A DNA stretch of 64,000 bases from Nitzschia sp. DOCU1 (Eukaryota; Bacillariophyta; Bacillariophyceae; Bacillariales; Bacillariaceae), in contig OX595999.1 in assembly GCA_951394045.1 (NCBI GenBank), forward strand, positions 1,550,001-1,614,000, written 5' to 3'. Below the pieces are notes generated by a model, which saw nothing but the letters and a program-made list of their open reading frames with translations, was not told the origin of the DNA and made no database searches. The translations under genes were made by a program, and so were the position numbers. Below, piece by piece: positions 10,850 through 57,538 of the stretch. How positions within the stretch are numbered: the first letter of the stretch is position 1; every line of letters begins with the position of its first letter.

Positions 10850-11400
10850 GCTGTGTATCTTGTGTTTCAAACGTGAATGACGCAATGACTTTTGGCTGGT
10901 GACCCCGAGCGTTGCCAGTTTCGCGATCGGAATACAGGAACTAGATGGGCGTGGGGAGGATCCTGGGGCTGTAGCTTTCAAGACCTGTTGTTGTGGTTCT
11001 TGTCGTTGCAGGTCAAATCGAAGAGATAGCGACGGCGGCTGTATGCATGTGAGAAATGCTACCGATCTTCAAGGAAGGGAGAGGAGCCACAGCCGCCCAA
11101 TCTTCTTCTCTCATTTTCATGCCGGGAGATGGGAAGAATGCTACTATGAGAATTCCGAAACGCGGATCGTACGAAAAACATATAGAGATTCAATGTCGGG
11201 CATTAAACGCAAGGCATATATTGACTCTATTGTCTATATAGCCCTAATCCCAAAGTTGAGTTCTCACTTGCAGTCATAAAGGCGATAATGTTCATCGAAG
11301 AAAAATATATAAGATGCAAATCTGGCATCTACCGTTTAAGGCATATTAGGTTGGTATTCTCACCTGGGTCATTAGGCACTATTGTTGTTCGACAAAAGAC
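10850..11400. other. Region upstream of GPCR gene
   Basis: This region probably holds the promoter and 5' UTR of the leftward GPCR gene, including the open-frame extension to 10981. No other gene is supported. It ends at the target duplication of the gypsy element. Confidence 0.4.
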
Positions 11401-12000: not shown

Positions 12001-12550
12001 TCTACTAGCTACCGATAGTACTTGCGTCGTCGTCTACTGGGGCCGTGAAGTAGCGTAATGTTAATGATAATGCTCTGGCTAGCACTGGCGTCGTTGACGC
12101 CGATGCCCCCGCCGCTATAGTCATAAAGTAACATAACAAGACAGAGCAAGAACATTAGCAGTGATGTGGCTGGCATCACTATTGCCCTCGCAGATCTATC
12201 TAGCTAGCTAGAGTAGTGGTGTTATTCGTTGAGTGAATGTAGTCATACAGCTCGAGGAGCATGCAGCTTACAGATCTTTCGGAGAGATCCAAAGCAATCC
12301 TCGTGGCTGCCTCGGCAAGAAGAGTAGCAAGGATCTTAGTTTGCCAGAAAGCGATGCCGCGCAAAGCGCGGAATCGAGCTAATCAAAATCTCATCCGTCA
12401 GTGTGGAAAATTTGCCTCCGGCGGAGCCCCAAGCTACTACTTCAAGATCCCGAGTGATGACTCCGGACTAGGGTCTATAGGTAAATGTCCTGGGTTTATA
12501 CCCTAGGACCATAGGTAGGCAGCCTCGGTCACAATGCCCGAGGTACTGCA

Positions 12551-12613: not shown

Positions 12614-15600
12614 CTACGGTGCAGGGAAAACACGCCGAATGTTGATTCGCTCCGTGATGTGCGGAGTCTTGCGAATGGTGATGTTGCCATTGGTGTGGAC
12701 TTGTTCGATAGTGTAGGGGCAATGAGTGCGTGGCTGTAGCTTGCCTGGATTAATCTCTTTCACTAGGACGCGTTGCCCCGGTTGATAGTCGTGTCGAATG
12801 CATCAAGTGTTGGCCTTCGCGAGGTTGCGTTCGACGATAACCTGGCAACGCTGTTGTAGTGCATCTAGGTCTGCTTGCAAAGGAATGTCGAGGAACATGT
12901 GACGGCTAAACGCTAGCTTGCCCGGCGAGTGGCCATCCAGCACCCGAGAGTTGGAGGCACGTGTGGCATGCATTGCGGTAGCGAGCACGTTGTCAACGAT
13001 GTCGGGGGCTGTGATGGCCGTGACGTTCTCGCCGTAAAGCAAGGTGCGCAAAATGTTGCCGACGGTTTGATGCATTTGTTCGTAGACGGCGTTGGACTGC
13101 GGATTGTGAGACGTCGTAGGACTGTCCTCGATACCGCACTGTTCCAACAGTTGTTGAAATTCGAAGCCGATGAATTTGCTGCCATTGTCGTGGATGCAGC
13201 GGAAAGGCCAAGGATATCGACTGAGCCAGCAATTGGCGAACTTTTGTGCTACATGCACTGCCGTAGTGTTGTCCACTTGTACCAATTCGACAAGGTTAGT
13301 AACAGGATCAATGCATGTCAAGGCACGGAATTGCACGTCGATGTTATTCACGGTTACCTTCCAGGGGCCAATGAGATCAATGTGTACTTTGGCCCAAGGC
13401 CAATAGGTAACGTCGCGCGGCACTAGTTCTCCATACCCCGCGCCTTGCTGTTTGTGCTGCTTACAGACAGCACAGTTGGCGCAGAAGGCCTCGATTGTGG
13501 CCTTGAGGTTCCGGTGATGAAAGCGTGCGCGAATCGAGTCGTACACTTGCATTGACCCAGCGTGGCCGAGCACGCGGTGAAACCACTCGACGGTATTCAT
13601 AAGCAACACCGTCGGGATGCAAATTTTCCATCGATTGGGATTTTGATCCCCAGGATCGGCACGATAACATATGATGGGGCGCCCATTGAAGTCCCGCACT
13701 GGGAACCATTGTGGATGCTGTTGTCGCTGCGCATTCAATTCGTTGTCCTCGAATTGATTCTCCTGTATCCAGCGAATCTCAATTGGGTTGTGCATTTGTG
13801 GTGGCGCCGGCAGATTGAGAAAACAATCCAACAATTCACCGTCATCTGTGAGCGAAAAGAAGAGCGACTCTTCCAACCCTGGTGCCGCACTCTTCCCCTC
13901 GGCGATTGACTCCATATGAGGCAAGCAAGAAAATGTGTCGCCCAAGATGTTATTTTTGCCTTCTAAATATTGGTATGTGATGTCGTAATCCTCGAGAAAG
14001 AGTCGCCATCGAAGGACACGAGAGTTGGTGAGAGTACGATAGGTGAGGTTTTTGTGATCGGTATATACCTTGATTACTGCACCGAGCGGTGTAGATCGAA
14101 ACTCTGACAATGTCATGACAGTCGCCAGTAGTTCCTTTTCCATCGTAGTGTAGTTGAGTTGCGCCGGAGTAAGCTTTTTGCTGTAGTAAGCGACGGGGAA
14201 ACCGTCTTGCATGATGCATGCACCAATTTGGTAGTCAGAGGCATCGGTGTAAATTGCGAATGGCTTGTTGTGATCGGGGAACCACATCAACACATCCGCT
14301 GCGATTACCGCCTTCATCTCTTCGAACGCCTTTTGATGTGCTTCAGTCCACTCGAATTTGCCCTTTCCTGTGAGATCGGTGAGTGGCTTGAGCACGTGAG
14401 AACGTCGCGGCCACATGTCGCGATAATAATTAACAGCGCCCAGGAAGCTGCGCAATTGCTTGATGTTTTGTGGGGCTTGCATTTTCAAGATGGCATCGAC
14501 TTTCTTATTCCACGGCTTAAGGCCAACGGGAGTTAGCCAATAGCCTAGCCAGTCGGTCTCTTTGACGCCCCATTCGCATTTCAGGGGATTGACAATGAAG
14601 CCGTTGTCGTCGAGCCGCTGGAAAATCTGGTCGAGCAGCACAATGTGCATCTTCCAGTCCTTGGAGAACGCACCGATATCGTCTAAGTAATTTTCACAGT
14701 CGATGCCTCGGAGAACTTCTTCCATGGTCTCCTGCACCATGTCGGGAGAACACTTTACCCCCATGGGGATACGACAATACTGAAACTTGCCGTACAGAGT
14801 GACAATCGTGCAGAGATCCTTGCTCTTGTCGTCAAGTTCCAGGGTGTAGAACATCATCGAGATGTCTAGCTTAGTGAAGAACTCATACCCTGTGCGTCTT
14901 TTGAGAACTTCGTTGATACGCGGCAGTGGATAGATGCGCCGCTTGATAACCTTGTTGAGCTAACGGAAATCCGAGACCCAGCGAACTCTGCCATCCTTCT
15001 TGGGGATGATGAACGTCGGCGACGCCCAATCCGTCGCGCCGACCGGGCATAGAATGCCGATTTCGCAAAGATGCTCTAACTCTTTCTTGAAGGTCGAGCG
15101 TGAACAGGGCGAGCGCCCGGTTCTATTTCGAGAGAGAATTGTCGGTGTGGATACTTCCGCAGTTTGTTCGAGAACAGTTGCAAGTACTTCGCCACTAGTC
15201 GCCTGATATCTTTGCATTGAGCAGGGGTGAGATGTGTTTGTTTGCTGGCCACTACTTCTGGAGAATGGCTCTCATCCTCAGTGTCAAGGATCGTGGTAAA
15301 GCCATCGGCTTGCTCAAGAGGATCCTGTTCGTAGGTGGCGTCGGCGCCATCGAGAACCCTGTCATAGATTTTGCCATTGGCGTAGCACATTTGGACTTCA
15401 ACGTCCATCCAGGTAACAGTGTTCCTTTCGAAGTCGAACTTCATTCCGGCCTTCCGTAGGAAGTCTCGGCCAAGAATGAGATCATAGGGGCAATCGCCAC
15501 CAAAGATGAAAGCGCCCTGCCCGTCAATCTTCTTGTTTCGATCGAATTTGGGGAGAACGACTTCGTGCAAATAAACGTAGCATTTGGACATAAACGTCCC

Positions 15601-15939
15601 AGCAATAGTGGTGGACTTGGACTCTCGTGACGCCAACGAAAGCACACACCCACGGGGGAGAATGCGTTCATGCGCCATGGTTCTGTCGCCACCGGAATCC
15701 AATAAAACTCGAAGGAGTCGTCGCGAGATGTGCCCATTGATCGTGTTGGCCACGATGAATGTCATCGGCGCTGGAGTCCTGTCGGGGCGGTACTCTTGTT
15801 CTGTTGGAGCAGAGGAAGTGTCAGCTGCAAAGTAGGCGCCTTGCATCCAATGAGAGTCGAGGGATAAAGAAAGACCAAGGGTCTTGTTAATTGTTTCATC
15901 TAAATCGTCCTCAACATCACACTGGATCGGCGCACCCCA
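12614..15939 (-). pseudogene. gypsy Pol polyprotein of element 1 (PR-RT-RH-INT), broken
   Basis: It follows gag in the same frame after TGA at 15940-15942. Protease at about 15770-15400: LLDSGGDRT active site (DSGG rather than DTG) and [29 protein letters not shown] and catalytic YLDD (near 14690). RNase [12 protein letters not shown]. Integrase: H-H-C-C zinc site (H-x-H ... CANCAVC) and D-D-E ([25 protein letters not shown]). Damage: near 15095 about ten codons between HAR and TFKKEL are deleted with a frame change; TAG at 14960-14962 sits where the other element has Glu (DFR-E-LNK); TGA occurs at 12803-12805. After that TGA the same frame continues to 12614 with the C-terminal chromo-like/GPY region. 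RNase H ends GDTFSCLP instead of the usual ADALSRL, consistent with decay. Confidence 0.88.
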
Positions 15940-15945
15940 TCAGTT
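15937..15945 (-). promoter_or_regulatory. Candidate UGA readthrough site between gag and pol (element 1)
   Basis: On the minus strand the codons are AAC TGA TGG. No frame change is needed to enter pol and no other stop occurs before the protease. The second gypsy element in this window has AAT TGA TGG at the equivalent place. Function as a recoding site is inferred. Confidence 0.6.
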
Positions 15946-17013
15946 GTTCCCCCAGTGGACGCGATTGTTATCACTAGTAGTAGTGTTGTTGCTACCCTGA
16001 TCGTAGGCGTAGCTGGTAGCGGACGTACCGCTTGTAGTTGGCGCTGGGTTCTCCGACCCCTGGCCTTGGGCGTAGTACGAACCATTGTTCTGCTGCCCAT
16101 TCCCACGGCCGCCTCCACGGACGGCATTGTGGTTCCGAGTGCCTCCGCGGCTGCCCGGCGAATTCCCGTTGACATTGCCGCCTCTGCGGTAGAAAGGGCT
16201 GCTGGGATTCTGATAATAGTTCGGGGAACAAGGATTCTGCGAGCAATTAGCCAACGAATGCATCCTGTTATGTAGGCGACAAGGGTTCCCTCCGTTGGAG
16301 GACTTCTGCTTCTTTCCTTTGCCCCTCAACTTTGGGCCAGAGGAAGAAGAGCCCTTACGCTTCTTGCCCGAGGATTCGTCATCGGCGGAATCTTTCTTCG
16401 CTGCTGGAGGCTTCTTCTTGTCGAGGATGCCTTTCTTGGTCTTCATGTACTCGATGATCTTGCGGCGAACGGCCTGAGTTGCCGCCGCATTCGCTCCGGG
16501 CTGCGGAAGCCCGTGGAGTAGCTGATACTCATCTTGCCAGCCTTGAGCAAAGCTCTTGAAGATTTTGTTGTTGATAACTTCTTCGGTAAGTTCCGCGTCA
16601 GCGCCACTCAAACAGTTTGCGTAGAGGCACAAAGTCTCGATCCGAGCGACGTGTTCCTCCACATCCTTGTCTTTAGGCTTCTTGCAGTGATCGCTGTCAA
16701 TGTAGCGAATCAAGTCGCCATGAGGATCGCGTGAGATGGCGTAATGCAAAACAAAATCCTTGAACTTGGTATCAAAGCGTTGGCGTGTGCAATCTGCATT
16801 GGGGATCGCGCGAACTTGATTTTCCCATTTGTGACGAGCATTCGCGTCAAGGACATCAGGGAAATACTCGAAATAATCTCCAACGTCGGCGTCGTCAAAC
16901 TGGAGGCGTTCACCGCAACGAATGAACTCATCATAGACATAGAAGAGGCCTTCGACGCCTTTGCTGCTATCGAAGATGGGGAGTTCGCATTGACGTTGCG
17001 TACCGTCGTCCAT
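15940..17013 (-). CDS. gypsy Gag of element 1
   Basis: A 357-residue capsid/nucleocapsid protein, uninterrupted from the first ATG at 17013. The frame is open further upstream to about 17085 with no Met, so a longer non-AUG or spliced N-terminus is possible. The N-terminal two thirds is helical capsid-like (FDTKFKDFVLHYAIS). Then come a basic KKRKG linker and an unusual zinc knuckle CRLHNRMHSLANC (C-x2-H-x3-H-x4-C, where retroviral knuckles are CCHC). The tail is Gly/Asn-rich. It ends ...HWGNN then TGA. The same frame runs on into protease, so Gag-Pol may form by readthrough. Confidence 0.8.
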   Translation of the reverse strand: MDDGTQRQCELPIFDSSKGVEGLFYVYDEFIRCGERLQFDDADVGDYFEYFPDVLDANARHKWENQVRAIPNADCTRQRFDTKFKDFVLHYAISRDPHGDLIRYIDSDHCKKPKDKDVEEHVARIETLCLYANCLSGADAELTEEVINNKIFKSFAQGWQDEYQLLHGLPQPGANAAATQAVRRKIIEYMKTKKGILDKKKPPAAKKDSADDESSGKKRKGSSSSGPKLRGKGKKQKSSNGGNPCRLHNRMHSLANCSQNPCSPNYYQNPSSPFYRRGGNVNGNSPGSRGGTRNHNAVRGGGRGNGQQNNGSYYAQGQGSENPAPTTSGTSATSYAYDQGSNNTTTSDNNRVHWGNN

Positions 17014-17122
17014 CAGCACTTCGAGCTTGTGAGTCGCGTAGTCCTTAACCTTGACGTGTTCCTCGTAGAGGACCGTCGTTACTCATAGTTACCGATTAGA
17101 TGTTAGTCTCCGCAAGGGAAAG

Positions 17123-17134: not shown

Positions 17135-17326
17135 TGACCTATCCTTGAGGAAGATGATAAAAAAAGGAATTATGACCTTACGATTGAGGGGCTCCGGCGG
17201 AGCCCCAAGCTACTACTTCAAGATCCGGAGTGATGACTCCGGACTAGGGTCTATAGGTAGGTGTTCTGGGTTCATATACTAGGACCATAGGTAGGCAGCC
17301 TCGGTCACAATGCCCGAGGTACTGCA
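17135..17326 (-). repeat. 5' LTR of element 1 (192 bp)
   Basis: The TG...CA-bounded repeat matches the split left LTR and is followed outside by the TCAGC duplication. It contains a GC-rich inverted segment ggggctccggcggagcccc (17189-17207). Confidence 0.9.
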
Positions 17327-20811: not shown

Positions 20812-21870
20812 TAGAACCAAGCTCTTGTTGCTTTACTCGATAATTTTGACGATGAAGACCATGTTGATTAAATAAGGATAATTCACATTGGTACGGCCCA
20901 GGATACAATCGTGCCCAAAGTGATAGAATCCGGCACTCAGTTCGACGAGGGAATACCCTTGACTCCGACTCAGTTGTCTTGACACTCATTTAATGCTGAG
21001 ACTTTTTAAAGGTATACCATATTCGTTTGATTTTACTACCAGTAGTAGAGAGACCATGGCAAATATTGAGATCAATGAAGTCGTCGCTGGATTTGACTTT
21101 TTTAGATTTATGTCTTTTCGGGCAAAGTGAGACCGGTAGTTCTCGTTCTGTCCGTTCTCGTTGGGGAAGTTGGCATCATGTTTGTGCTGACTTCAAACAG
21201 ATGGTGGGTCAGTCTGTTTCCTTCTGTACTACAGTATCACGCTCAAAGGTGCAAGACGGTGAAATACTCTTACAAGTTTCCCCGCGTTTCTGTTTCCATT
21301 CAGATCTTTGGACCACAATTTCTGCGTTAAGTTATTTTATTAACAAGATGGCTCTACCGGTAGATAGGGAACATGCAATTTTTCTACCACCACTTAGGGC
21401 TCAGATATCGGGAACGCGAAGATAACGGGAAAACGTCAAAATTCAAATTGCCCCTTCATTAGTGGAGCTTTCAACGAGTGCATATGGAGGCACCAAAATG
21501 TACTTTTGTGTTCTATTGTAGCGCAGGGCACGTAGGAATTCTGGAGCTATAAGAAGCCGGGTCGTGTTCTAATTATGGGCGAACCTGGGCACGCCGAGTG
21601 AAGCATCCATATTTTCCTCGTCGCTCTCCAATCATCAGTGCTCCTTTATCTCCTTTTTTGGGGCTCCGCCGGTCTCGTCGTCAAACTCAACATCAACGTC
21701 GTACGCTTCGCTGACATGAACCAATAGCTGGTATTGCTCAACTTACTACCATTCAGTAGACGAGCATCTTCCCTGTGTGTTTTATCATGTCCCTTTCGCT
21801 TTCGGGAACCTATCAACCGAGGAAAAACTCTTGTAGTGCAAAGGGAGGAGATGTGACTACGGGCACTGAC
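20812..21870. other. Spacer between the two histidine kinases
   Basis: About 1 kb with no supported gene. Short ORFs on both strands lack protein-like composition. The last part belongs to the duplicated 5' flank of the kinase. Confidence 0.45.
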
Positions 21871-43644: not shown

Positions 43645-46600
43645 ATGTCGGTGGGTGCCAATTTTTCTTTTTCGTCCTCTAACTTTTTCGGAATGCAAAG
43701 AGCGAACAAAAACGATACCATCATGGAAAGTCATTCGAAAAGCACCTCTACTATGAATTCGTACGATGAAGAACCAGTTGGAAGAGTTCATTCTAGTAGT
43801 AGCAGTGACGATTCTTCAACAATGGAAGACGACGAGTCCTCGCAGGGGCTACTACTACTAGTAGTGCTAGTAAGTGGTCGTGCTGGTGTATCAGCAAGCT
43901 CCTGCTGGCCGGCCGGTCATCACGTTTTGAGCCGGCGTTGAAAAAGCATAGTAGCCTCACCGCCATCATTCTCGCTTCCTGCTCTCTCTTCAGGTCGCCG
44001 CGAAAGCCTCGAAACTACTATTTGCGTCACTCCTCGAGTATCTGGTGGTGGGGGTGAGGAGGAGGGTGGTGGTGGGCCTGATCATGCTGGTACTAGCAAT
44101 AGTTGGAACAGTATTCGCGGCCATTTGTGATTTTCTTGTTATACTCAATGGAACGAGTTCTGCGGCGATTCATACCGATCAGCTGGCCCCGCAATCGTCA
44201 TCTGGTGGTAGGTTCTTGCTTGAGAAAGTGCCGCTCCGGCCATGCATCAGCGGGTTCAATTTGAATTTCTTCCTCCTCACTCGTTCTCCTTTGTTGTTCT
44301 TCTTGCTGGAACCTAGCTAATATAGCAGTAACCAGCACCACCAAGCTGATTCGCGCTGAACCATACTACCACGGCAGAAAGCGGAATGACCACGGTGTAG
44401 ACGAGATTTCCAAGAAGAACGAGATCGACCACGCGGAACATTATTACGATGCCGCCATGAGTAGAGTACTCCAAGAAGAAGAAGAAATCGACTGTGTTCT
44501 CTCGGAAGAAAACGTTTTTGTTTTCCATATTCTCCTGCAGCTCAACAGCCCAGACAACTGCGTGGGTAATGTAGCCAATGGAACGTTTCTTCTGTTGAGC
44601 GAAAATGACAAGGGGCAACTCGAGGATATGTTAGTAGCCTCCTACACGACTTTGGCAGAGCGGTATTGTGATCCATACTACCGCAAAGTCTCGGGCGTCG
44701 AGATCTTTACTCAAGGGACCTCTCCTTCTTTGTTACTTGAGGGTGCTGGCTCCTCGTTGACTTTGGAAATCAAAGTATTCGGGACTCTCCGTTGCAAACA
44801 ATCAGAGGCCTGCAAGGTCGACAAAATTGGTTTGTTCGATTCTCCGGTGCAAGGATCCTTACCCGAGCAAACATGCTTGTGCCCCGAGGACTTGAACAAT
44901 ACCGCTTTCGTCGCAATTAACCGAGGTCCTACCGAGGCAGAGTTTACGGAATATTTCGGTGCCAGTTTGGCTACGGTAGCTCCTGCCCTACTAGACTGCG
45001 CTGATCTCCAAGTGGCTGCGTGTGCTTTCGGAACAGTCTTCCATTCGGCCGTGGAAGTCACTTTTGCGGACACGGAAGAAGCTAGAAATGTTTCAAGCGA
45101 ATTGCTTGGTTCAAGGGCGCTGAGGACGTTCAACGATCTATACACGCCGCCTAATGATGATCCCAATGTTTGTTACACCAATGTCAGGTTCTTCCAGACC
45201 GTCAGCGTCGCGTTCCAAGAAGCTCGTCGTCGGCTAAACGAAACCGACGACATTAACTCTTGCCAAATGCCAGAAATTGCTTCGTCTCCTGCTGCAGATA
45301 TTAATGGAGGTGATGCCGTGCTTTTGGGGCACAACGCATCAACAGCTCCATCGGAATCACCTAGCAGACCCATTGATGCTATTACCACGAATGGTCAGAA
45401 GCTGACAGCTATCCTTTATGTCAACGGGGTCTGTTCTCATTGCGAAAGGGATCTCTTTGTTGTGAACAACGAAGTATCCACAAGACGAAGCCTGACAGCA
45501 ACTTTCCAGGACACAATGGAAGATTGTCCAGGGCGAACGCTTCAAGATAGCAACGCCACCAGCATGAAGTCGAACTGCTATTGTCCCATCGGCTCCGTGG
45601 TCGCCGAGGCACCTGTCCCGACGATCGAGCAGTTCAAAACCACTCTAGAGGAGCGACTCCAGCTGAAGATAACATACATCCAACAAGTGGGCTCAGATGA
45701 GATGGTCGCGGTGGACGATGAAAGTTCTGTCAGCCTTGTCCCCCATAGTTATCCTTGTACTAACGTAAGCTCGACTTTCAAGAGAAACGTCACCCTGGAG
45801 CTCCAGATTACATGTGGGGCTTCTGCGGCGCTATCTGAAGACAATAAAAACATGATCGGTTTGGCATACGTCGATGCGTACAATGCCCTCCGAAGTACGG
45901 TGTGCGATCCGTATAAGCTGAAGGTGACGGGCGCCAAGGTTGTTGCAACTGGTGAGTTGAGGGACAGTGGCACAAGCCTACCACTCACAATGGAAGTCTT
46001 GTTGGTCTGTTACGGCTGCGACCTGCTAGGGACGAGCGTGTACGGATTCCCTGATTTCTCGAGCGAGGATCATACGACCGCGGGAGTCAATCTAGCACCT
46101 AATTATACGAAGACTCGCCGTGACGCGGCGCGCTCCTCTAGAAGCCGATGTCACCGAGGCTCTTGACTTCTCCGTACTGCAAGAACCATGCATTGGGAAT
46201 ACAACATTCTGCGACTTTGGGACACCCTTCGCAAGCAGTGCCTTGCTCGAAGTCCAAGGCAATGGCACCCTTGATCTTCTCGAAACAGCAAAGATCCTAG
46301 AAAAAGCGTACGCAAATGCATTGGACAGGCTGATTGGTGGAGGTAACGCCACGGTGTGTAACCCTCTTTTTGGCCTTGTCACAGAGACTGAGGTATATCT
46401 CGACTTTGCTTACAACAGCGTGGACAGTAACCCCAACGTGACGGCAAGGCGCCAACTCCAAGACCTGCCAGCAACTGCAGCGCCCACATCAGACTCCACG
46501 TTTACGTTCTCCTGGTCGTCGTCCGTATCCGGAAACAACATCACCGACAATCCTACCACTGCTCCAACTATTCAAGTAGCTGATGACACAGGGTTATTCC

Positions 46601-49055
46601 TGCTTGAATCATCTGGTTTGTGCAACGGGTGTCCAACAGAACTGATATTCAATGACGCGGCGGATAGTCGTAGACGAATCAATCAGATCAGCACTGACGC
46701 CAAGATCGGTAGAACTTCGATGTCTGATTCTCGGCTCTTGCAAGAAATGACAAGACAGGATATAGAATCGGAATGCTTCTGCCCGATTGGATCGGTTCAA
46801 GTTGTAACCGATTTCCAGCAGACTTCATTCCTTGAGATTATCCAGGAAGAGGTGGCCAAAATAAGCAACACGATCACAGTTACAGGAGCAGTATCCGGCG
46901 TTAAGAGAGTTGATTGCGTCGAACAGACGCCGTTCTCAACAACTATCAACTTTGCATTCTCAGCTTTCGAGTGGGTTGGCAACAATCCAGATCATCTTCA
47001 AGGCCTGGGCGATGCGATTGCAAAGATATACAATGGTTTAGTGGAACAGTTCTGTGACATATACTTCCGCAATTCCATCGCCTTGACGTACGTCGCTGGA
47101 AGCTTGCAACGGGCGTCAATAGCAGGGCGGCGGCACGACAGAGACTTGCAGCAGAATATGCAAGGATGTTTCAATTATCGTGCTACATTCACTGTTAACG
47201 GCCTATGTCGGGGTTGTCAAGCCCTCGGAACGCCGATCCCGATATTCGGTAACAGCACACTCAATCGAAAGCTTCGCGAAGCCAGCACCAGACCTGTTTC
47301 GCAGTTATCAGGGCAACGCCGACTTCAAGAGGCCGGCTCGACATGTATCTGCGATAGCACCTCCTCGATTTCTCAGCGAAGTGCTCCGAGCTTGGGGGCG
47401 ATACAGGCTGAACTAGAAAAATTGATTCCAGACACATTGCCCTGGACGCAATATCCGTCGATTTGCGGCTTGCCGGTCCAAGTTGAGGTTCCTTGTGCTT
47501 TGATACCAACGGGTCCCTCAGCAACAATTTCCTTGACCTTTTACGCTCGTCGCTCCGATGGCCGGTGTTTGACAGCAGCGGATTTGAACCAAATGGCAGC
47601 CCATTTTACCGATGCTTTCAATACGAGGAAACAACTGGAACGCTTCCCGTGCGAGCCACAATACATTCAAGTCTCCAACGTTTTCATCGACCAGTCATCC
47701 TTAGACGGTTGCCTTCGCCGTCGCGAACTGTTGAGACGTGGCATACAGGACGATGAGGAAGAATTCGCAAGTAAAAATGGCGCACCAAGGCAACTTCTGC
47801 AAGACTTTTCTTTGATGACAACATCCATGACTTTCACTGGCAGCATTTGGACGACCAATCTTGCTGCGATTCTAGCGGACGAACGAACCAATGTGGTGGC
47901 TGCCGAACTCGATATCACGGTGAGAAGCGGAGGGCTCTACGAAATAGAAACCGGAAGAGCTACCCACTCTCCCAGTGTCACGCCTTCAAGCTTTCCAAGC
48001 ACATTTCCATCCGAATTCCCAACGGAGCAATCAAGCATCCCGCCCGGCGAGAGTCCATCATGTGGCCCTACATCAGACTCATGTACTGGAACTCTTTCAG
48101 AGGTTCAAGCTTGGTGCGATTCATTGGCAGGTGCCGATGCATGTTGTGTCCCTCAATGTAGTTTTTCGTGGGAAGCCACCATCTTCAAAAGATCGTGTAA
48201 TGGCGGCAGTGTAGAGGCCTGTAACTTTTTTGGAACCCCATCCGTATCCATCACTGTGGCTGCCGATTCATGCAACGGAGAGAGAGCGTGCTCCGGGATT
48301 GCATGGCAATATGGCACTTCCATATCTATTGGCACCAATAGTTGCAATGGATATTTTGCGTGCGCCGAAATTGCTACAACGCAAGGCACTGAAATAAGTA
48401 TCGGCACCAATAGTTGCAATGGACATCTTGCCTGCTATTCGCTTGCTAGGGATTTTGGCACCTCCATATCGATTGGCAGCGGGTCTTGTCAAGGATCTGA
48501 GGCATGCACCTATATTGCTCTCTCGCAACGCACTTCCATTTTCATTTATGCCGATTCCTGCTACGGAGCCCGAGCGTGCAACGGTATCGCTTACTATCAT
48601 CAAGGCACTGAAATAAGTATTGGCCCCAATTCTTGTCAAGGAAACTTTGTGTGCGAAGGAATCGCAGGCGATGTAATAATTGAGGAAAGTTCTTGTCTAG
48701 GAGACTATGCCTGTCATTCAGTTGCTAATGACGGCACGGGAACCTCGATTGGCAAGCAGTCTTGTCAAGGCGGCTATTCGTGCAACTCGATTGCTTCTGC
48801 TGTTCCAGGCGCTGCCGTAACAATTGGGGATCTCTCTTGTCAAGGAGACAATTCGTGCAACCAGGTTGGCGTTTTCACTGCCACTACCGTGACGATCGCC
48901 AAAGGGGCCTGCAACACGAAGAACTTGGTCGGTCCCTGGCCACTTCTGTGGTTGTTGTGCAGGGGGCATGCACCTCGACTTGCGGAAGCGCGTGTTCTTT
49001 GTTCGATGCAACCGGGAATGTGCAGTGCAACGATTGCGGTTGCGCTGTTGTGTAG
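43645..49055 (+). CDS. Large Cys-rich membrane glycoprotein with SCxGxxAC repeats
   Basis: Proposed exons: 43645-43869, 43994-44207 and 44329 onward. Introns are 124 nt (GTAAGT...TTCAG, phase 0) and 121 nt (GTAGGT...AGCAG, phase 1). A Ser-rich acidic cytosolic tail precedes one TM helix (VVVGLIMLVLAIVGTVFAAI). A long ectodomain holds several copies of a roughly 250-residue Cys module (C-x-C-P-x-G-S-V/A... CDPYxxKVxG). After a Ser/Pro linker come about nine tandem repeats of 24-27 residues of the form SCxGxxAC--IA----xxIG (48150-48910). Two frame switches are needed: between about 46096 and 46166, and near 48925, after which the other frame gives a Cys-rich end (CGSACSLFD...CGCAVV) stopping at 49055. 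These may be real frameshifts, an undetected intron or assembly errors. Start could also be ATG 43693. It is probably a cell-surface protein; function is unknown. Confidence 0.6.
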
Positions 49056-49429
49056 ACAAGGATTGGAACATTACAAACATCATGAAAGGATGCTTATGAG
49101 GATGCGGAGCGTCCCCTCAGACGCTACCAGGTACTACTGTAGGGCGCCCTTTTCTACTGGTAGCTTCGGGCAAGATTTGGTTTTCTGAGCTATAAGAAAT
49201 ATATAATATATCCGTGGATGCATATGTATTGGGGGACATCTGAGCTGTAAAAAGGGTCATCTGAGCTGTAAGGGCTGTCCTCCCACACGTTGGAGCTGGC
49301 CCAAGAACAAATAACATAAGCCCCCAAATGACTTTAGGGCATATGTAAGGTTAGGGTTAGGATTAGGGTTTGGGTTGGGGGCTATATTATTTTACAGCTT
49401 AGATGACCTTTTTTATAGCTTAGATATTA
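49056..49429. other. Intergenic, imperfect inverted repeat around a telomere-like stretch
   Basis: CATCTGAGCTGTAAAAAGG (49239 on, repeated at 49258) and the inverse TTTTACAGCTTAGATGACCTTT (49390-49412) flank the block. This could be a small MITE, but clear ends were not found. Confidence 0.4.
49351..49380 (+). repeat. Interstitial telomere-like repeat
   Basis: Five hexamers in a row: TTAGGG, TTAGGA, TTAGGG, TTTGGG, TTGGGG. Confidence 0.7.
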
Positions 49430-50102: not shown

Positions 50103-50559
50103 TGCAGTACACTAGAATACCCCTCTAGACCTAACAAGTAGTTAGAACGTTAGAACGTTGTAACATTGCAACGTTAGAATGTTCGAACGATGAGTACACA
50201 CAATGGCCTACGTGTAGTACCAACATACCTTAGATATATACCTGCCGACGTCGACTTGGTCGAACGCCCGTGGACGCACGGACGGACGGGCAAGGCCGGC
50301 GCGGCTGACGAGCAATGGCGACGACAACGGCGAGCGCGGCGAGCCGTCGACGTCTACTACTGAACTAGGAGTTCCAACGGTATCTAGCTATAGACCTTGA
50401 AGAGATCCGAGAAGCTAGATCAGTGGGAGTTGCATCCAACGCATACCGGATGCGTTGAGGAAAGACTCCGGTGATCTAGGAGCGATAGAATCAGCGATAA
50501 CTTTAGATCTCACAATTATTTCCACTACAACTATTTCATCGTACTTTCAGCGTAGTGCA
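50103..50559 (+). repeat. 5' LTR of element 2 (457 bp)
   Basis: TGCAGTACAC...TAGTGCA. It differs from the 3' LTR at four transitions. Confidence 0.93.
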
Positions 50560-50581: not shown

Positions 50582-51781
50582 ATGCGTGAGCTAAAGATGA
50601 AGATTGCAAACAGCATCCCGAAGAAGACCGCTGCCGAGAAGCAGGGTTTCAAATCAGCACCGGTCAGCATCGAAAGACCCGAGCCGAAGGAGCTCAAAGA
50701 TGGGGCGTACAGTCAATATGACTTGCGTATCGACCCAAAGGACAAAAAATCGTTGACGCGACGCGTCAAACAACCGCATTTCACGGAAGGAACACCCGAA
50801 GAGTGGTTCCTTTTCCTCATCGGACTTAAGGATGTGATCGCGGGTCAGGACCTAACTACGGGACCTCAGAAATTTGCGTTAACACGCAATTTGCTGAAAG
50901 GCCAGGTATTGGCTGCGTTCAACGCGAAGGCCTCGGAACTCGAAGCCGAAACTCCTGAGACTTTCGAGAAAAGTTTGCACGCGGTTACGGCGTATGTTCT
51001 CCCAAAACGCGCGGTGCAACTTCAAAAACGCTATATGCGTCGGATCTGCCGAAAGCCCCCGACGATGACAATGAAGGCGTATGTCGCTCGGCTCCGCGAG
51101 CTAAACGAGTACCTCGCGCTATTCGACGAGAAAGGCGAGAAAAACAAAATTCCCGACGACGAGCTCATGGAGAATTGCGAGTTTGGAATCCCCGCCAAGT
51201 GGCGCAAAGAGATGATCCTACAGGGATTCGAGCCCGTGGACCACACGGTTCAAGACTTTGTAGACTTCTGCGAACGGCTGGAAGCTACCGAGGAGATCAA
51301 TGAAGCCCTCAGTAAGAAGGCAGACAACAACGGCAAGTCGAATGACGAAAAACCCTCGAAGAGGAAGCGCGGAGGCCCGAGAACGGGAACCGACGGTAAG
51401 GCCAAGTATGATTGTCTTTATCATGGCGCTAACAACACCCATGCTACCCACGATTGCCTCATTTTAAAGGATCAAGCAAAGAAGATGGCGGCTGCCCATT
51501 CGAACGTCGCAGGTCGTTTCAAAAAGGCCCGCTTCGAAAACAAAACTTGGCGCCGCAGCGACAGCGATAGTGATGGCGAAAAGAAGAAGAAAACAGGCGA
51601 GCTTCATGCCTACATCAAGTCGATGGTCGAAAACGCGGTCAAACAATCTGCGAAGAAGCGCAAGGCCGAAGACCCTCCTTCGATGGATAATTTTAATTAC
51701 GATATGGATGATCTCAACGGCATCGATTTCGACAAACTCAGTGTCAGCAGCGGCAGCGACAGCGACACCGACATGAATTGA
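50582..51781 (+). CDS. gypsy Gag of element 2
   Basis: A 399-residue protein starting at ATG 50582, 22 nt after the LTR; the frame continues upstream to a GTG at 50555. A helical capsid region (EEWFLFLIGLKDVI, KAYVARLRELNEYLALF) is followed by a basic linker KRKRGG. A CLYHGANNTHATHDC knuckle follows (C-x2-H-x5-H-x4-C, again with His in the second position, unlike retroviral CCHC). The tail is acidic, Ser-rich, and ends DTDMN. The stop is TGA (51779-51781) in frame with pol. It binds and packages element RNA in virus-like particles, as in the family. Confidence 0.88.
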   Translation: MRELKMKIANSIPKKTAAEKQGFKSAPVSIERPEPKELKDGAYSQYDLRIDPKDKKSLTRRVKQPHFTEGTPEEWFLFLIGLKDVIAGQDLTTGPQKFALTRNLLKGQVLAAFNAKASELEAETPETFEKSLHAVTAYVLPKRAVQLQKRYMRRICRKPPTMTMKAYVARLRELNEYLALFDEKGEKNKIPDDELMENCEFGIPAKWRKEMILQGFEPVDHTVQDFVDFCERLEATEEINEALSKKADNNGKSNDEKPSKRKRGGPRTGTDGKAKYDCLYHGANNTHATHDCLILKDQAKKMAAAHSNVAGRFKKARFENKTWRRSDSDSDGEKKKKTGELHAYIKSMVENAVKQSAKKRKAEDPPSMDNFNYDMDDLNGIDFDKLSVSSGSDSDTDMN

Positions 51782-51784
51782 TGG
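51776..51784 (+). promoter_or_regulatory. Candidate UGA readthrough site between gag and pol (element 2)
   Basis: The codons are AAT TGA TGG. A small potential hairpin GGC-GUGA-GCC (GNRA-type loop) starts at 51783, right after the stop. Pol has no ATG-led ORF before its coding region: the ORF following the stop opens with TGG CGT GAG CCG and the first Met comes about 36 codons later. Readthrough is inferred. Confidence 0.65.
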
Positions 51785-54700
51785 CGTGAGCCGGTTACTA
51801 CGTGTGAATACAATAATATTAATAGTGACAAATTGAACGATTACACTAGTTTTGTCCATAGGGATGATGTCCAATATATGGAATCATTCTACAATAGCAA
51901 TGGCATTTCAAGCGTAACACCAAATTTGCAAAATTCACACACAGGGCGATCTCGAAGTTTCAGCTCTCTCGATGCATGTCTGGCGGAAGCACAGCGCGAG
52001 CGCGAGCTTTACTTATTGAACACGATTCGAGGTAGTCGAACTGTAGGCTCAAACAAACGACAAAAATCCAGTCATCTAGTACCTATCACGTTTGCACGTG
52101 TTAACCAACGCGGCGGACGTCGGCAACAAGTAGTAACCGTCAAGGCACTTCTTGACTCTGGCGGTAGTGGCTGTCTCTGGAAGAAGAGCAGTGCTAGCAA
52201 ACTAAAAATAAAGACCCAAAAAGCGACTACTGTATTCACGACTATGAGCGGTAGCTATAAGTGTACTGAACGCGTGACCACGCAACTCAGTCTACCAGAA
52301 CTACACGACGATCGATTGATCGAGTGGGATTTTCACCTAGCAGATGATCTAGGTAACTACGATATGATTATAGGCAGAGACCTCATGCAAGAGCTAGGTC
52401 TAGTGATCGACTTCAAAGCTATGGAAGTAGAATGGGACGATGCACGTATGCCAATGAAAGAAATAGATGCGACGGCGGCGATGTCGTATCATGTACATGA
52501 ACGCGGACACGTCGATGAGATGTCGGACCGCGTCAAGGAAATTCTCGACGCCAAGTACGAGAAAGCCGATGCACGTAGCATCGCTAGAGAGCAAACTCAC
52601 CTTAGTAAGGATGAGCAGAGTAAGCTAGAACAGCTACTGACAAAATACCAGACCCTATTCGATGGTACCCTCGGCCGATGGCGTGGGGCCCCCTATGATA
52701 TTGAACTAGTAGAAGGTGCAAGGCCGTACCATGCTAGAGCGTACCCTGTACCGAAAGCGTACGAGCGCACTCTCCGCGATGAAGTCGAACGACTCTGTCA
52801 AGTCGGAGTACTCAAAAAGGTGAACCGCTCCGAATGGGGTGCACCCACCTTTATCATCCCCAAAAAGGATGGAACAGTTCGATTCATCAACGACTTCAGA
52901 GAATTGAACAAACGGATTAAACGCAAGCCGTATCCAATCCCGAAGATTCAGGACTTACTGATGAAGCTAGAAGGTTTTCAGTACGCGACGAGTCTCGACC
53001 TCAACATGGGTTATTACCACATAGAGTTAAGCCCAGATAGTAAGAAGCTATGTACTATCGTACTTCCTTGGGGTAAGTACGAAATGCAACGCTTGCCGAT
53101 GGGGCTCTCAAATAGTCCCGACATTTTCCAAGAGAAAATGGGCACCCTCTTTGAAGATCTAGAGTACGTACGAGTGTACATTGACGATCTACTAGAACTA
53201 ACTAAAGGCAATTTTGATGACCACCTAGAGAAACTAGAAGTCATTTTCAAACGTCTAAAAGACACCGGCCTCAAGGTGAACGCCCGGAAGTCCTTCTTCG
53301 CCCGTGGCGAACTGGAATACCTTGGGTACTGGATAACACGAGATGGAATCCAACCAGTCGCTAAGAAAGTAGAGGCTATTCATGCCATGAAGGCACCTAC
53401 TAACAAACGCGAGCTCCGCAAATTCATAGGCGTAGTTAACTACTATCGCGACATGTGGATTCGCCGCTCTGAAGTTTTAGCCCCACTGAGTGCGCTAACT
53501 TCTAAAGAAGCCAAATGGCAATGGGGTCCGGTCGAGCAGAATGCTTTCGACACGATGAAACGAATTATAAGTAAGCAGACACTACTAACATACCCCGATT
53601 TCAACATACCATTCGAGATACACACCGATGCTAGTCATACTCAGCTAGGTGCAGTGTTATCGCAACGCGGGAAACCGATTGCGTTCTATAGTCGAAAATT
53701 GAACCCGGCGCAAACGCGCTATACTACGACGGAACGAGAGCTTTTAGCTATCGTCGAAACACTTAAAGAATTTCGCAATATCCTTTTGGGACAGCGAATC
53801 AGAGTCTTCACAGACCATAAAAATCTTACGTATAAAGAATTTAATACGGAGCGCGTCATGCGTTGGCGCCTCTTAATTGAGGAGTTTGGCCCCGAGCTGG
53901 TCTACATCAAGGGCGAACACAACGTCGTTGCGGACGCACTTAGTCGACTCGACCTCGACGATAGAGCTTTCCCCGAATCTCACTTAAATGAGTTTTTGGC
54001 GGGCGACGAATTACCGCGCGATGCATTCCCCCTCACTTACAAAAATATAGCGCGCATGCAGAATGCCGACTGCGCCTTATTAGCTAAAGTACGCACAAAC
54101 CCACGATATTCAGTTAAAGTCTATCGTGGGGGCGGAAAGAAGCGAGAACTAATAGTACGCGAGGACAAGATTGTTCTCCCAACGAGTCTCCAGAAGCGGT
54201 GCGTCAAGTGGTATCACGAGATGCTCTGTCACCCAGGAGAAACGCGTACCGAACAAACGATTCGACAACACTTCTACTGGAAGAACATCCGCGGCGATGT
54301 TGAGCGGATCTGCAAGTCCTGTCCGACCTGTCAGCTGACGAAGCGAAAGACAATCAAGTACGGGCATCTTCCACCCAAGGCGGCGGAAATAGATCCTTGG
54401 GATACGCTATGTGTCGACCTGATAGGTCCATATAAGATAAAACAACTAGGTAGTAAAAAGACACTACAACTATGGTGTCTCACTATGATAGATCCCGCAA
54501 CCGGATGGTTCGAGATGGTACGCATAGCAAATAAGGAAGCCTTTTCGATAGCCAGTGCGGCCGAAATGGCGTGGTTCACACGATACCCGTGGCCACAAAA
54601 GATCATTTATGACCGCGGAACTGAATTCATGGGAGAATTCCGAAGAATGGTGCGCGAAGACTACGGCGTAATGACCAAGCCAATTACAGCGCGAAACCCG

Positions 54701-55192
54701 CAGGCTAATTCAATTATCGAGCGAGTTCACCAAACCATAGGGAACATGATTCGCACTTTCGAGTTGCAAAACTCCGAAGACACGGAGTCACTGGACGGAG
54801 TCCTTGCAGCCACTATGTTCGCAGTACGCGCAACGTATCACACAACAATGCAAGCGACGCCATCACAGCTGGTGTTTGGCCGCGATGCTATTCTCAACAC
54901 CCGGTTCAAAGCTAACTGGAAATTAATTAAGGAACGAAAACAATCTCGTATTATCCAAAATAACGAAGCAGAAAACAAGACGCGAAGAGTTTACCGGTAT
55001 CGCGTAGGACAGAAGGTAATGGTCCGCAATGAGCAATCCCGCAAGTATGGGACAAATCCGTATAGCGGTCCGTATGAGATCGTGTACATTAATGACAATG
55101 GCTCTATTTGCATTAGGAAAGGAGCAGTACAACAAACATACAATATCCGGAATCTGCATCTGTACGAGGAACGCGATGCTACTGACGAGTGA
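51782..55192 (+). CDS. gypsy Pol polyprotein of element 2 (PR-RT-RH-INT)
   Basis: 1136 codons from the gag stop to TGA at 55190-55192, uninterrupted. Protease: ALLDSGGSG near residue 122 with IIGRDLM later. [34 protein letters not shown] and YIDD near 465. RNase H: HTDASHTQLGAVL near 613, ending VVADALSRLD. Integrase: H-H-C-C (HEMLCHPGE...CKSCPTC), D-D-E in CVDLIGP (about 877), YDRGTEF (about 942) and NSIIERVHQT (about 979), then a C-terminal GPY-type module (YSGPYEIVYIND). All catalytic residues are present, so this copy could be active. It carries DSGG where the classical protease has DTG or DSG. I start the feature at the codon after gag because no initiator Met is placed sensibly. Confidence 0.9.
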   Translation, partial: WREPVTTCEYNNINSDKLNDYTSFVHRDDVQYMESFYNSNGISSVTPNLQNSHTGRSRSFSSLDACLAEAQRERELYLLNTIRGSRTVGSNKRQKSSHLVPITFARVNQRGGRRQQVVTVKALLDSGGSGCLWKKSSASKLKIKTQKATTVFTTMSGSYKCTERVTTQLSLPELHDDRLIEWDFHLADDLGNYDMIIGRDLMQELGLVIDFKAMEVEWDDARMPMKEIDATAAMSYHVHERGHVDEMSDRVKEILDAKYEKADARSIAREQTHLSKDEQSKLEQLLTKYQTLFDGTLGRWRGAPYDIELVEGARPYHARAYPVPKAYERTLRDEVERLCQVGVLKKVNRSEWGAPTFIIPKKDGTVRFINDFRELNKRIKRKPYPIPKIQDLLMKLEGFQYATSLDLNMGYYHIELSPDSKKLCTIVLPWGKYEMQRLPMGLSNSPDIFQEKMGTLFEDLEYVRVYIDDLLELTKGNFDDHLEKLEVIFKRLKDTGLKVNARKSFFARGELEYLGYWITRDGIQPVAKKVEAIHAMKAPTNKRELRKFIGVVNYYRDMWIRRSEVLAPLSALTSKEAKWQWGPVEQNAFDTMKRIISKQTLLTYPDFNIPFEIHTDASHTQLGAVLSQRGKPIAFYSRKLNPAQTRYTTTERELLAIVETLKEFRNILLGQRIRVFTDHKNLTYKEFNTERVMRWRLLIEEFGPELVYIKGEHNVVADALSRLDLDDRAFPESHLNEFLAGDELPRDAFPLTYKNIARMQNADCALLAKVRTNPRYSVKVYRGGGKKRELIVREDKIVLPTSLQKRCVKWYHEMLCHPGETRTEQTIRQHFYWKNIRGDVERICKSCPTCQLTKRKTIKYGHLPPKAAEIDPWDTLCVDLIGPYKIKQLGSKKTLQLWCLTMIDPATGWFEMVRIANKEAFSIASAAEMAWFTRYPWPQKIIYDRGTEFMGEFRRMVREDYGVMTKPITARNPQANSIIERVHQTIGNMIRTFELQNSEDTESLDGVLAATMFAVRATYHTTMQATPSQLVFGRDAILNTRFKANWKLIKERKQSRIIQNNEAENKTRRVYRYRVGQKVMVRNEQSRKYGTNPYSGPYEIVYINDNGSICIRKGAVQQTYNIRNLHLYEERDATDE

Positions 55193-55222: not shown

Positions 55223-55679
55223 TGCAGTACACTAGAATACCCCTCTAGACCTAACAAGTAGTTAGAACGTTAGAACGTTGTAACATTGCAACGTTAGAAT
55301 GTTCGAACGATGAGTACACACAATGGCCTATGTGTAGTACCAACATACCTTAGATATATACCTGCCGACGTCGACTTGGTCGAACGCCCATGGACGCACG
55401 GACGGACGGGCAAGGCCGGCGCGGCTGACGAGCAATGACGACGACAACGGCGAGCGCGGCGAGCCGTCGACGTCTACTACTGAACTAGGAGTTCCAACGG
55501 TATCTAGCTATAGACCTTGAAGAGATCCGAGAAGCTAGATCAGTGGGAGTTGCATCCAACGCATACCGGATGCGTTGAGGAAAGACTCTGGTGATCTAGG
55601 AGCGATAGAATCAGCGATAACTTTAGATCTCACAATTATTTCCACTACAACTATTTCATCGTACTTTCAGCGTAGTGCA
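55223..55679 (+). repeat. 3' LTR of element 2 (457 bp)
   Basis: Matches 50103-50559 except for four transitions. It is followed by the GGAG target duplication. Confidence 0.93.
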
Positions 55680-55951: not shown

Positions 55952-57097
55952 CTATCTAGTCTTATAGTTCTTTTCTCTATTTGTGAGAGGCTCTGTAATG
56001 GTTTTGGCAAAGCGGCTCAGCTCTGGATAGATCCCATCAGTTAGAAACCATAGCTCATTGAACTGCCTGCCTCCAATAGTGAATGGGTGGAGTGGGTCGA
56101 CACACTCCTTCCAAGTTCCATTTTCAAATGCTTGCAACAAAGTAGACCGGTTCCAGATGTCAATATCATTCATTGATCCTGGAAACCCAAAGTTGCAATG
56201 CCAAAAGTATGCATTGTAGTCGCAGGCAGCCTCAACGATGATTGTTGGGTGGCCTTCTTTCCCAGTAAGCTGTCCTGACCAAGCTTTGGGACAATTTTTC
56301 CACCGAAAGTGAGTACAGTCAATCATTCCAGCCATCCCCTCTATCCCAAATTGGGCTTGATGCATTGCCATGACTTTTTGTGCATCTTCACGAGTCATGG
56401 GCCGGAAATACTTTGCATTGAGTTCTGCGTCATTGGCAATGGCATGGAAGAACATTGCTGCAGAATCTCTGACAGATTTCTCAGAAATTTGAAAGTAGTC
56501 CATGAATGCACTCAAGGAAGTACCAAACCTTGCGACTTTCAATACATTCAAAGCTTTAATTTTACCATCTATAGGCTGTCGATTAGCTGCATCTCTACTT
56601 GGTGCAAACGTCTTGGGATATTGACGCATGGCAGCAGGCATCAGCTCATCAATGAACAGTCTCTTTGTGATCCCAAACATTTGTGAGAAGATCTCATCAT
56701 TGAAGATGGGTTCATCAGCTAGATAATCTTCATACACATTTTTGGCAGCACGTTCCCGGTTCAGGCGACTCTTCCGCCTTCTTTTCCCATTGATACCCTC
56801 TTCCTCCTTGGCTTGCATTCGTTTTAAGTTGCAAACTTTGTTGGGATCACTTTCATTCTTGCATGTGGCCGTGATCACTCTGTAGATTTGTTCCTGTTGA
56901 TGTTGTACCTTCATTCGTTGCATCAGCAGTACTCTAGCAATCATCAGTGGTGGGACTAGGAGGACAATGGGTACCGGTACAATACCAGTTGCAGCCATTA
57001 TAACCTGCCAGGAAACACTAAGCTCAAACAGCACCCATAGGCGCCTCTCTTCGGTGGAGATATTCTTCATGCTGAAATTTACTGTTGGGGCGGATGC
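55952..57097 (-). CDS. PIF/Harbinger DDE transposase, C-terminally truncated
   Basis: 381 residues from ATG 57097. A hydrophobic stretch near residues 30-70 (VIMAATGIVPVPIVLLVPPL) precedes a Lys/Arg-rich part and the helix-turn-helix-like region (SLSAFMDYFQISEKSVRDS). The DDE nuclease core follows: GMIDCTHFRWKN (first Asp), FPGSMNDIDIWNRS (second Asp) and FLTDGIYPELSRF. Family members then have an R-x-x-x-E-R-x-F-G segment with the third acidic catalytic residue. Here the protein ends PLTNREKNYKTR, so that Glu is missing. The 3' end overlaps the convergent SANT-like gene by 16 bp. The enzyme is probably inactive. Confidence 0.82.
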   Translation of the reverse strand, partial: ASAPTVNFSMKNISTEERRLWVLFELSVSWQVIMAATGIVPVPIVLLVPPLMIARVLLMQRMKVQHQQEQIYRVITATCKNESDPNKVCNLKRMQAKEEEGINGKRRRKSRLNRERAAKNVYEDYLADEPIFNDEIFSQMFGITKRLFIDELMPAAMRQYPKTFAPSRDAANRQPIDGKIKALNVLKVARFGTSLSAFMDYFQISEKSVRDSAAMFFHAIANDAELNAKYFRPMTREDAQKVMAMHQAQFGIEGMAGMIDCTHFRWKNCPKAWSGQLTGKEGHPTIIVEAACDYNAYFWHCNFGFPGSMNDIDIWNRSTLLQAFENGTWKECVDPLHPFTIGGRQFNELWFLTDGIYPELSRFAKTITEPLTNREKNYKTR

Positions 57098-57538
57098 CAT
57101 GAGAATGGTCTGCAGCGGGTCTTGGACCCGATGTGCACGCTGACCAATCCCTCCGCTAGCCGCCAGCAATTACCCAAAGCGTCCCACACAACCAGGCGAT
57201 CCCGTTAAAACAGGCTCTGTGACTGGTTGCTTTGAGCAGGACGGGTGGTCAGTGCCAGTAATTTATGAGTTTGTTGTTGTTGCTGTTGTGTGAAATGAAT
57301 TTTGTGGGTCTTGTGGACAGAGTTTCGGAAAGGGCGGGAAATGCCGATGATCCTGTGGCTCAGTTAAACCAGTTAAATTTCATGTGTTTCACTCTGATCC
57401 AATCTCCCGCCAAAAATTGAAAAATAGCCGAGTCCTGGGAGTCATTTTGGTGTGCAATGGTTACGGATGCACTTTTTGCCCTGTTCCACGTCATCAAGAA
57501 AATAGCTCGGGGAGAAATAGCCCGGCATTATAGCCCTA

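What the first reader, a model, noticed from the sequence alone, without database searches (positions are those of the whole stretch)
51776..51784. Gag and Pol joined by one in-frame UGA: probable programmed stop-codon readthrough in a diatom gypsy element
In element 2 gag ends AAT-TGA and pol continues in the same frame with TGG CGT GAG CCG; no frameshift is needed and the rest of both genes is intact (LTRs about 99% identical). Element 1, very different in sequence, has AAC-TGA-TGG at the same place and in the same frame. Two diverged elements with the same AAY-UGA-UGG context and an open frame beyond it argue against random decay. Ty3/gypsy elements usually use a frameshift or a single ORF; in-frame stop readthrough is best known from gammaretroviruses. 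A GGC-GUGA-GCC hairpin follows the stop in element 2.
Basis: partly seen in the sequence, partly recalled or inferred. Interest (0 to 1): 0.85.

Follow-up and report, generated by a model that had tools for sequence, protein, structure and literature searches.

The report
Leaky stop codon joining gag and pol
Retrotransposons in this algal genome end their shell-protein gene with a stop codon that ribosomes probably read through now and then to make the enzymes; the stop is kept in every family copy we could read, and it had been known in such elements mainly from fission yeast.

Summary
The in-frame TGA between gag and pol is real and is not decay. Pattern searches of the 52-Mb genome, with the stop left free, found TGA in 57 of 57 element-2-type junctions, 63 of 63 of a second family and 13 of 13 of a third. 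Element 1's family and a fifth have it too; contigs from other organisms have in-frame UGA or UAG. The conserved context is not TGA-TGG: the next base is C in 56 of 57 element-2-type copies, the window copy being the exception, and 8 of its 13 private substitutions are CpG transitions. One family carries a covarying RNA stem-loop 3' of UGA-C. Indels just after the stop are multiples of three, and in four loci the first AUG lies beyond the protease active site. Best explanation: programmed UGA readthrough giving Gag plus some Gag-Pol. Precedent: fission-yeast Tj1, nearly inactive without its gag stop (PMC4600332). New here: a diatom-like host, several lineages, a stem-loop signal. Readthrough itself is inferred, not measured.

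The parts
50103..50559 (+). 5' LTR of element 2 (lineage C), starts TG, ends CA
50597..51778 (+). gag of element 2, 394 codons from the ATG at which most metagenome homologues also start; predicted capsid fold plus a C..H..H..C knuckle (seen by eye)
51779..51781 (+). in-frame UGA at the gag-pol junction
51782..51784 (+). codon after the stop, TGG here; CGG, CGA or CAA in the other copies (private CpG-type C-to-T change)
51782..55192 (+). pol of element 2 (linker, protease, RT, RNase H, integrase), 1136 codons, own stop TGA
55223..55679 (+). 3' LTR of element 2, 453 of 457 identical to the 5' LTR
15943..17082 (-). gag-side open frame of element 1 (lineage D), 380 codons
15940..15942 (-). in-frame UGA of element 1; next codon TGG, CGG in relatives
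15079..15939 (-). start of pol of element 1 (protease), 287 codons
15845..15927 (-). predicted long stem-loop 3' of the element 1 UGA, arms about nt 13-20 and 88-95 after the stop
12806..14959 (-). rest of pol of element 1 (RT, RNase H, integrase) in another frame: copy is broken
17192..17326 (-). core of the 5' LTR of element 1 (true borders not resolved)
12416..12550 (-). core of the 3' LTR of element 1 (true borders not resolved)

Best explanation
Programmed stop-codon readthrough. Most ribosomes end at the UGA and release Gag. A minority decode the UGA, probably with a near-cognate tRNA, and go on in the same frame to make Gag-Pol, which sets the Gag:Pol ratio. In most lineages the signal looks like the known type II signal: UGA followed by C (CGG, CGA, CTA and others). 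In lineage A, and probably D, an RNA stem-loop follows. Shown here: the stop, its frame, its invariance, the +4 C, the covarying stem in lineage A, and triplet-length indels just after the stop. Inferred: that ribosomes read through, how often, and with which tRNA.
For: UGA in 57 of 57, 63 of 63 and 13 of 13 family junctions with the stop codon left free; the three further matches (one, two) were fetched and are unrelated sequence. All 66 junctions read from fetched loci in five lineages (31 C, 22 A, 7 B, 4 D, 2 E) are UGA in the pol frame, and so is L099, a further lineage A copy. +4 C in 56 of 57 C-type and 13 of 13 A-type matches. Lineage A stem: 40 of 40 cells paired in the inner four pairs, 9 cells changed on both sides, covariation 0.678 against 0.372 shuffled, 0 of 500 shuffles as high. 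Shared indels next to the stop are multiples of three, and those of 9 and 3 nt lie before the first in-frame AUG (codon 31) of the copies that carry them. In L051, L052, L071 and L078 the first in-frame AUG is at codon 83-137, the protease active site at codon 42. Other organisms: L092 has UGA-AGG and L091 UAG-GAA, both in frame; 25 of 30 Gag homologues end in an acid/serine tail like the query's; 119 of 120 listed pol homologues are 638-1179 aa, one is fused at 1497. Tj1 precedent: without its gag stop it was virtually inactive (PMC4600332, passages).
Against: No translation, proteome or RNA data. The linker after the stop is only weakly constrained by codon position in lineage C (variable sites 29/36/52 at positions 1/2/3 over 330 nt, against 13/10/38 in the last 180 nt of gag). 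Two of the five measures for the lineage A stem do not beat shuffling (pairs with two-sided change 3 against 1.9, reached by 75 of 500; further pair types 5 against 5.1, reached by 455 of 500), and the stability z of its 60-nt window is -0.5 to -4.6 in five loci, beyond -2 in only two. Lineage B, with the most junctions matched, has UGA-A, not a recognised leaky context, and its one folded copy shows no stem (z +1.3 to +2.1). Lineage C shows no stem either. Lineage E has UGA-U. In Candida Tca2 a similar gag-UGA-pol junction did not by itself direct readthrough in a yeast reporter (PMC2194720, abstract). The window copy has the less favourable +4 U.
Confidence: 0.87

Rival explanations
1. Decay: the TGA is a random nonsense mutation in dying copies.
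For: Many other copies do carry further stops, and element 1 is broken.
Against: 133 of 133 family junctions have TGA with the codon left free; copies such as L009, L010, L011, L024, L027, L028 and L029 are open on both sides up to gag's start region and the end of the fetched stretch; relatives in other organisms have an in-frame stop there. The patterns need intact flanks, so badly decayed copies are not counted.
Confidence: 0.01
2. Splicing: a small intron removes the UGA from part of the RNA, as recalled for plant Ogre elements.
For: In lineage A the stop sits in a TG-GTGAC context that contains a GT.
Against: Element 2 has no GT between 51745 and the stop. Indels close on both sides of the stop, if shared by two or more copies, are multiples of three, so both sides behave as exon. 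The lineage A stem lies where the intron would be. No RNA data were available.
Confidence: 0.06
3. Termination and re-initiation: Pol is started at an AUG after the stop and is not fused to Gag.
For: An AUG lies 8-13 codons after the stop in 18 of 22 lineage A loci, 12 codons in all 7 lineage B loci, 6 or 12 codons in some C copies, and directly after the stop in L094.
Against: The AUG is not conserved: codon 6, 12 or 31-34 within lineage C, and beyond the protease active site in 4 of 22 lineage A loci; triplet-length indels occur before the first AUG.
Confidence: 0.04
4. The UGA is decoded as selenocysteine or by a changed genetic code.
For: UGA was found in all five stop lineages of this genome.
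Against: Pol of element 2 is 1136 codons without UGA and itself ends in TGA; no match to any Rfam family up to E 1 in element 2 (that SECIS models are in Rfam is recalled); an outside relative has UAG.
Confidence: 0.01

Closest known systems
Tj1, Tosmo1-3 and Tcry1, Ty3/gypsy elements of fission yeasts (PMC10085805, PMC4600332; passages)
   Same: Single in-frame TGA between gag and pol, TGA followed by C (CTA/CTG; part of lineage A shares TGA-CT), Pol made as a low-level fusion.
   Different: Those have a fixed 8-nt GAATGACT core and a chromodomain; here the upstream codon varies, several contexts exist, no chromodomain match was found in element 2, and one lineage has a covarying stem-loop, which the passages I read do not report for them.
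Type II viral readthrough signals (UGA with CGG or CUA and often a 3' stem-loop; defined in PMC11166343, passages)
   Same: UGA, +4 C, CGG in lineage D relatives and part of C, CTA in part of lineage A, stem-loop in A and probably D.
   Different: Stem starts about 12-22 nt after the stop rather than 6-12; lineages B and E lack the +4 C.
Gammaretroviral gag-UAG-pol readthrough (type III; PMC11166343 and PMC5009743, passages)
   Same: In-frame stop between gag and pol.
   Different: UAG with a purine-rich octamer and pseudoknot there; UGA here, pseudoknots not examined. The outside relative L091 has UAG-GAA.
Candida Tca2 (Ty1/copia; PMC2194720, abstract)
   Same: UGA between gag and pol.
   Different: Potential 3' pseudoknot, junction alone insufficient in a yeast reporter; copia class is recalled.
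GyDi elements of the diatom Thalassiosira (PMC2806351, passages)
   Same: Diatom Ty3/gypsy; that paper says most accepted elements have one or no stop codon or frameshift between gag and pol.
   Different: It did not name the stop or propose readthrough in the passages I read; sequences not compared here.

Membership tests
Ty3/gypsy LTR retrotransposon (Metaviridae) | PR-RT-RNase H-integrase order between LTRs | tested here: met
   the protease match of element 2 is below Pfam's cut-off (20.8 against 24.3 bits)
Ty3/gypsy LTR retrotransposon (Metaviridae) | ORF1 is Gag with a retroviral-type capsid fold | tested here: met
Type II readthrough signal | UGA stop in frame with a downstream coding frame | tested here: met
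Type II readthrough signal | 3'-adjacent CGG or CUA | tested here: inconclusive
   Met in lineage D relatives (CGG), part of C (CGG; also CGA, CAA) and part of A (CTA; also CGA, CAG, CAA, CTG); not in B (AGG), E (TCA) or the two window copies (TGG)
Type II readthrough signal | 3' stem-loop about 6-12 nt after the stop | tested here: inconclusive
   Present with covariation in A but starting about 14-22 nt after the stop; predicted in D, 5' arm from about nt 13; no signal in B and C
Type II readthrough signal | measured readthrough | not testable with these tools
   needs a reporter or ribosome profiling
Fission-yeast Tj1/Tosmo/Tcry1 group | GAATGACT core | tested here: not met
   lineage C has AAT/GAT-TGA-CGR in nearly all copies; lineage A has TGG-TGA-C
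Fission-yeast Tj1/Tosmo/Tcry1 group | chromodomain in the integrase | tested here: not met
   no such domain among the Pfam matches (E up to 0.001) of element 2 pol; other lineages not tested
Gammaretroviral type III readthrough | UAG stop | tested here: not met
   UGA in 133 of 133 family junctions of this genome; the outside relative L091 has UAG

The most novel reading that the evidence does not exclude
In-frame gag stops with readthrough are a standing strategy of gypsy elements in diatom-like hosts and their aquatic relatives, not an oddity. They recur in two deep clades beside fused and frameshifting families. One branch (lineages B and C here, L092 elsewhere) uses a readthrough context of its own, UGA-(A/C)GR-UGU-G, that works without a nearby stem and also with +4 A, which the classes described in PMC11166343 do not cover.
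Probability: 0.35. Interest if true: 0.72.

Novelty: new variant of a known kind. Interest (0 to 1): 0.6.

Why it matters
It places programmed stop-codon readthrough in Ty3/gypsy elements well outside fungi, in a host with fucoxanthin-type light-harvesting genes. It gives a covarying RNA signal and natural variants of the +4 base to test. One genome also holds stop-type, frameshifted and fused gag-pol families side by side, so switches of strategy can be followed. Annotation that splits such elements at the stop will misjudge them as broken.

Tried and rejected
Scans for relatives with element 2 pol alone found no relative in viral contigs or genome contigs. With an alignment, viral contigs gave none and genome contigs five contigs in bacterial MAG records, of which L091 and L092 were informative; L094 has TGA-ATG but its gag side is open for only 65 codons, and L093 and L095 do not show the junction. 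Stem-loops in lineages B and C: no signal. Pseudoknots and long-range pairing were not examined. Rfam on the window and on element 2: no match. No tRNA in the window. A two-row fold alignment of lineage D used badly chosen coordinates and is not relied on. One search failed on a file-writing error and was repeated. The first-look script missed minus-strand loci and is replaced. Profile search of Gag against PDB sequences: nothing up to E 0.1. Host identity: one light-harvesting protein matched several algal groups, another matched a fucoxanthin protein, PDB 6ly5, at 1.4e-83; that 6ly5 is from a diatom is recalled. Literature: no paper on readthrough in diatom retrotransposons was among those listed; subscription papers, including Gao et al. 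2003 (recalled), are mostly not held. PMC6875170 (passages) was looked at and not used.

Full report

Is the stop decay? I read the junction in fetched copies. All 31 element-2-type copies (lineage C: L009-L038, L073) and all 4 readable element-1-type copies (lineage D: L039-L041, L043) have TGA in frame. I then searched the whole genome with the stop and some bases after it left free. Lineage C gave 58 matches, of which 57 are family members by their bases, all TGA. Lineage B, the 1135-aa pol family, gave 63 of 63 TGA. Lineage A gave 15 matches, of which 13 are family members, all TGA; the reversed control gave one chance match. The three odd matches were fetched: two are a tandem host-type gene in an open frame of its own and one is non-coding, none resembling the elements. 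So no sense codon was found. The patterns need the flanks to be intact, so badly decayed copies are not counted, and the lineage A pattern missed 11 of the 22 fetched lineage A loci.

Context. The base after the stop is C in 56 of 57 lineage C matches; the exception is the window copy. Of 13 substitutions private to the window copy among eight copies compared over 2715 columns, 8 are CpG transitions, at 352 CpG-context sites. Lineage A has TGG-TGA-C (CGA, CAG, CTA, CTG in 22 of 22 fetched loci; CAA in L099). Lineage B has TGA-AGG (62 of 63; TGA-GGG once). Lineage E has TGA-TCA (2 of 2). Lineages B and C share TGA-(A/C)GR-TGT-GAG in most copies.

RNA structure. Lineage A carries a stem with an RUGGGR loop that starts 25, 28, 31 or 34 nt after the stop. 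Over 10 distinct sequences (22 loci) the inner four pairs are all paired, three of four have changes on both sides, and the covariation score is 0.678 against 0.372 shuffled (0 of 500), falling to 0.15-0.38 when the partner is slid. Two of the five measures do not beat shuffling: pairs with two-sided change (75 of 500) and further pair types (455 of 500). By my script, 8 or 9 of the first 9 pairs form in each sequence, taking the better of no bulge and one bulge; four of the ten use the bulge. The 60-nt window after the stop is among the three most stable of 23 in pol for each of five loci, but its z is -2.6, -1.5, -1.6, -0.5 and -4.6, and longer windows are unremarkable. Lineage D has a predicted long stem, 5' arm CCAGTG at nt 15 after the stop in 4 of 4 copies, 3' arm CATTGG or CACTGG. 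Stability z at 130 nt is -4.4, -2.6 and -2.5 in the three copies tested, with no signal at 60 nt; against other pol windows of the same locus the junction is the most stable in two of four copies. Lineage C (six copies) and B (one copy) show no excess.

How pol is reached. In lineage C, indels shared by two or more copies near the stop are 3, 6 and 3 nt before it and 30, 6, 9, 3 and 21 nt after it, all multiples of three; non-triplet gaps (5 and 1 nt) occur in one copy each. The copies with the 9- and 3-nt gaps have their first in-frame AUG at codon 31, beyond the gap; the two with the 30-nt gap (L022, L023) have one at codon 6, before it; the 21-nt gap lies beyond codon 34. In lineage A loci L051, L052, L071 and L078 the first in-frame AUG is at codon 83-137, after the protease active site at codon 42. 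This argues against re-initiation, and against an intron around the stop. The linker is weakly constrained by codon position (29/36/52), so the argument rests on indels and frame.

Other organisms. L092 (contig in a proteobacterial MAG record, by its content probably a stray eukaryote contig) has E-UGA-AGG-UGU-GGG in frame, and L091 E-UAG-GAA. Of 30 Gag homologues found, 25 end in an acid/serine tail like the query; P0029 runs on into pol-like sequence. That search could not see full fused proteins because of its length limits. Of 21 lineage A Gag homologues, three of the four closest end in W like the query (...QW...QW...GW; P0152 ends ...VWY); none of the other 17 does. Of 120 listed pol homologues (of 1193), 119 are 638-1179 aa and one, P0059, is a fused 1497 aa; split frames there could be stops or frameshifts.

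Other strategies in the same genome. Of the 40 loci fetched have the in-frame UGA. L044 and L074 are fused, L059 and L062 have gag in another frame overlapping pol, and L045, L046 and L075 are unclear. L083-L086 were fetched as examples of families with single open frames of 1484-1618 codons. On a protease-RT tree of 30 rows the UGA families fall in both deep halves, and the starred branches force at least five changes of that label. The tree warns of long branches.

Comparison. Type II readthrough is UGA with CGG or CUA and often a stem-loop 6-12 nt on (PMC11166343, passages); lineages A, C and D fit part of this, B and E do not. Fission-yeast Tosmo1-3, Tcry1 and Tj1 have GAA-TGA-CT(A/G) (PMC10085805, passages), and Tj1 without its gag stop was virtually inactive (PMC4600332, passages). 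Tca2 shows that a UGA junction alone may not suffice in a reporter (PMC2194720, abstract). A diatom survey says most accepted elements have one or no stop or frameshift between gag and pol, without further comment in the passages I read (PMC2806351). I therefore call it a new variant of a known kind.

Host. The genome has 63 places matching the chlorophyll-binding family, and one protein matches a fucoxanthin protein of the Protein Data Bank at 1.4e-83. Diatom is likely but not proven.

Noticed in passing
L059:1006-2464 and L062:883-2335: Gypsy family with gag in another frame that overlaps the pol frame by about 150 nt (a +1 or -2 shift would join them).
   Followed up: partly
window 18164-23865: Long direct repeats about 4 kb apart (99%, 87% and 79% identical stretches), one copy inside a histidine kinase/response regulator ORF: probably a tandem gene duplication.
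   Followed up: no
window 44265-49188: Two long ORFs in different frames overlapping by about 70 nt; the second has DUF7640 matches. Not examined further.
   Followed up: no
window 55955-57169 (-): ORF with a plant-transposon-type DDE match (PF04827) just after element 2.
   Followed up: no
window 8063-11068 (-): ORF with periplasmic-binding-protein and class C GPCR (7tm_3) matches.
   Followed up: no
L091:1060-1062: Outside relative with UAG rather than UGA at the gag-pol junction, followed by GAA.
   Followed up: partly
lineage B, 63 places: Numerous family with UGA-AGG, many members giving identical scores with a 1135-aa open pol frame; no known signal explains readthrough there.
   Followed up: partly
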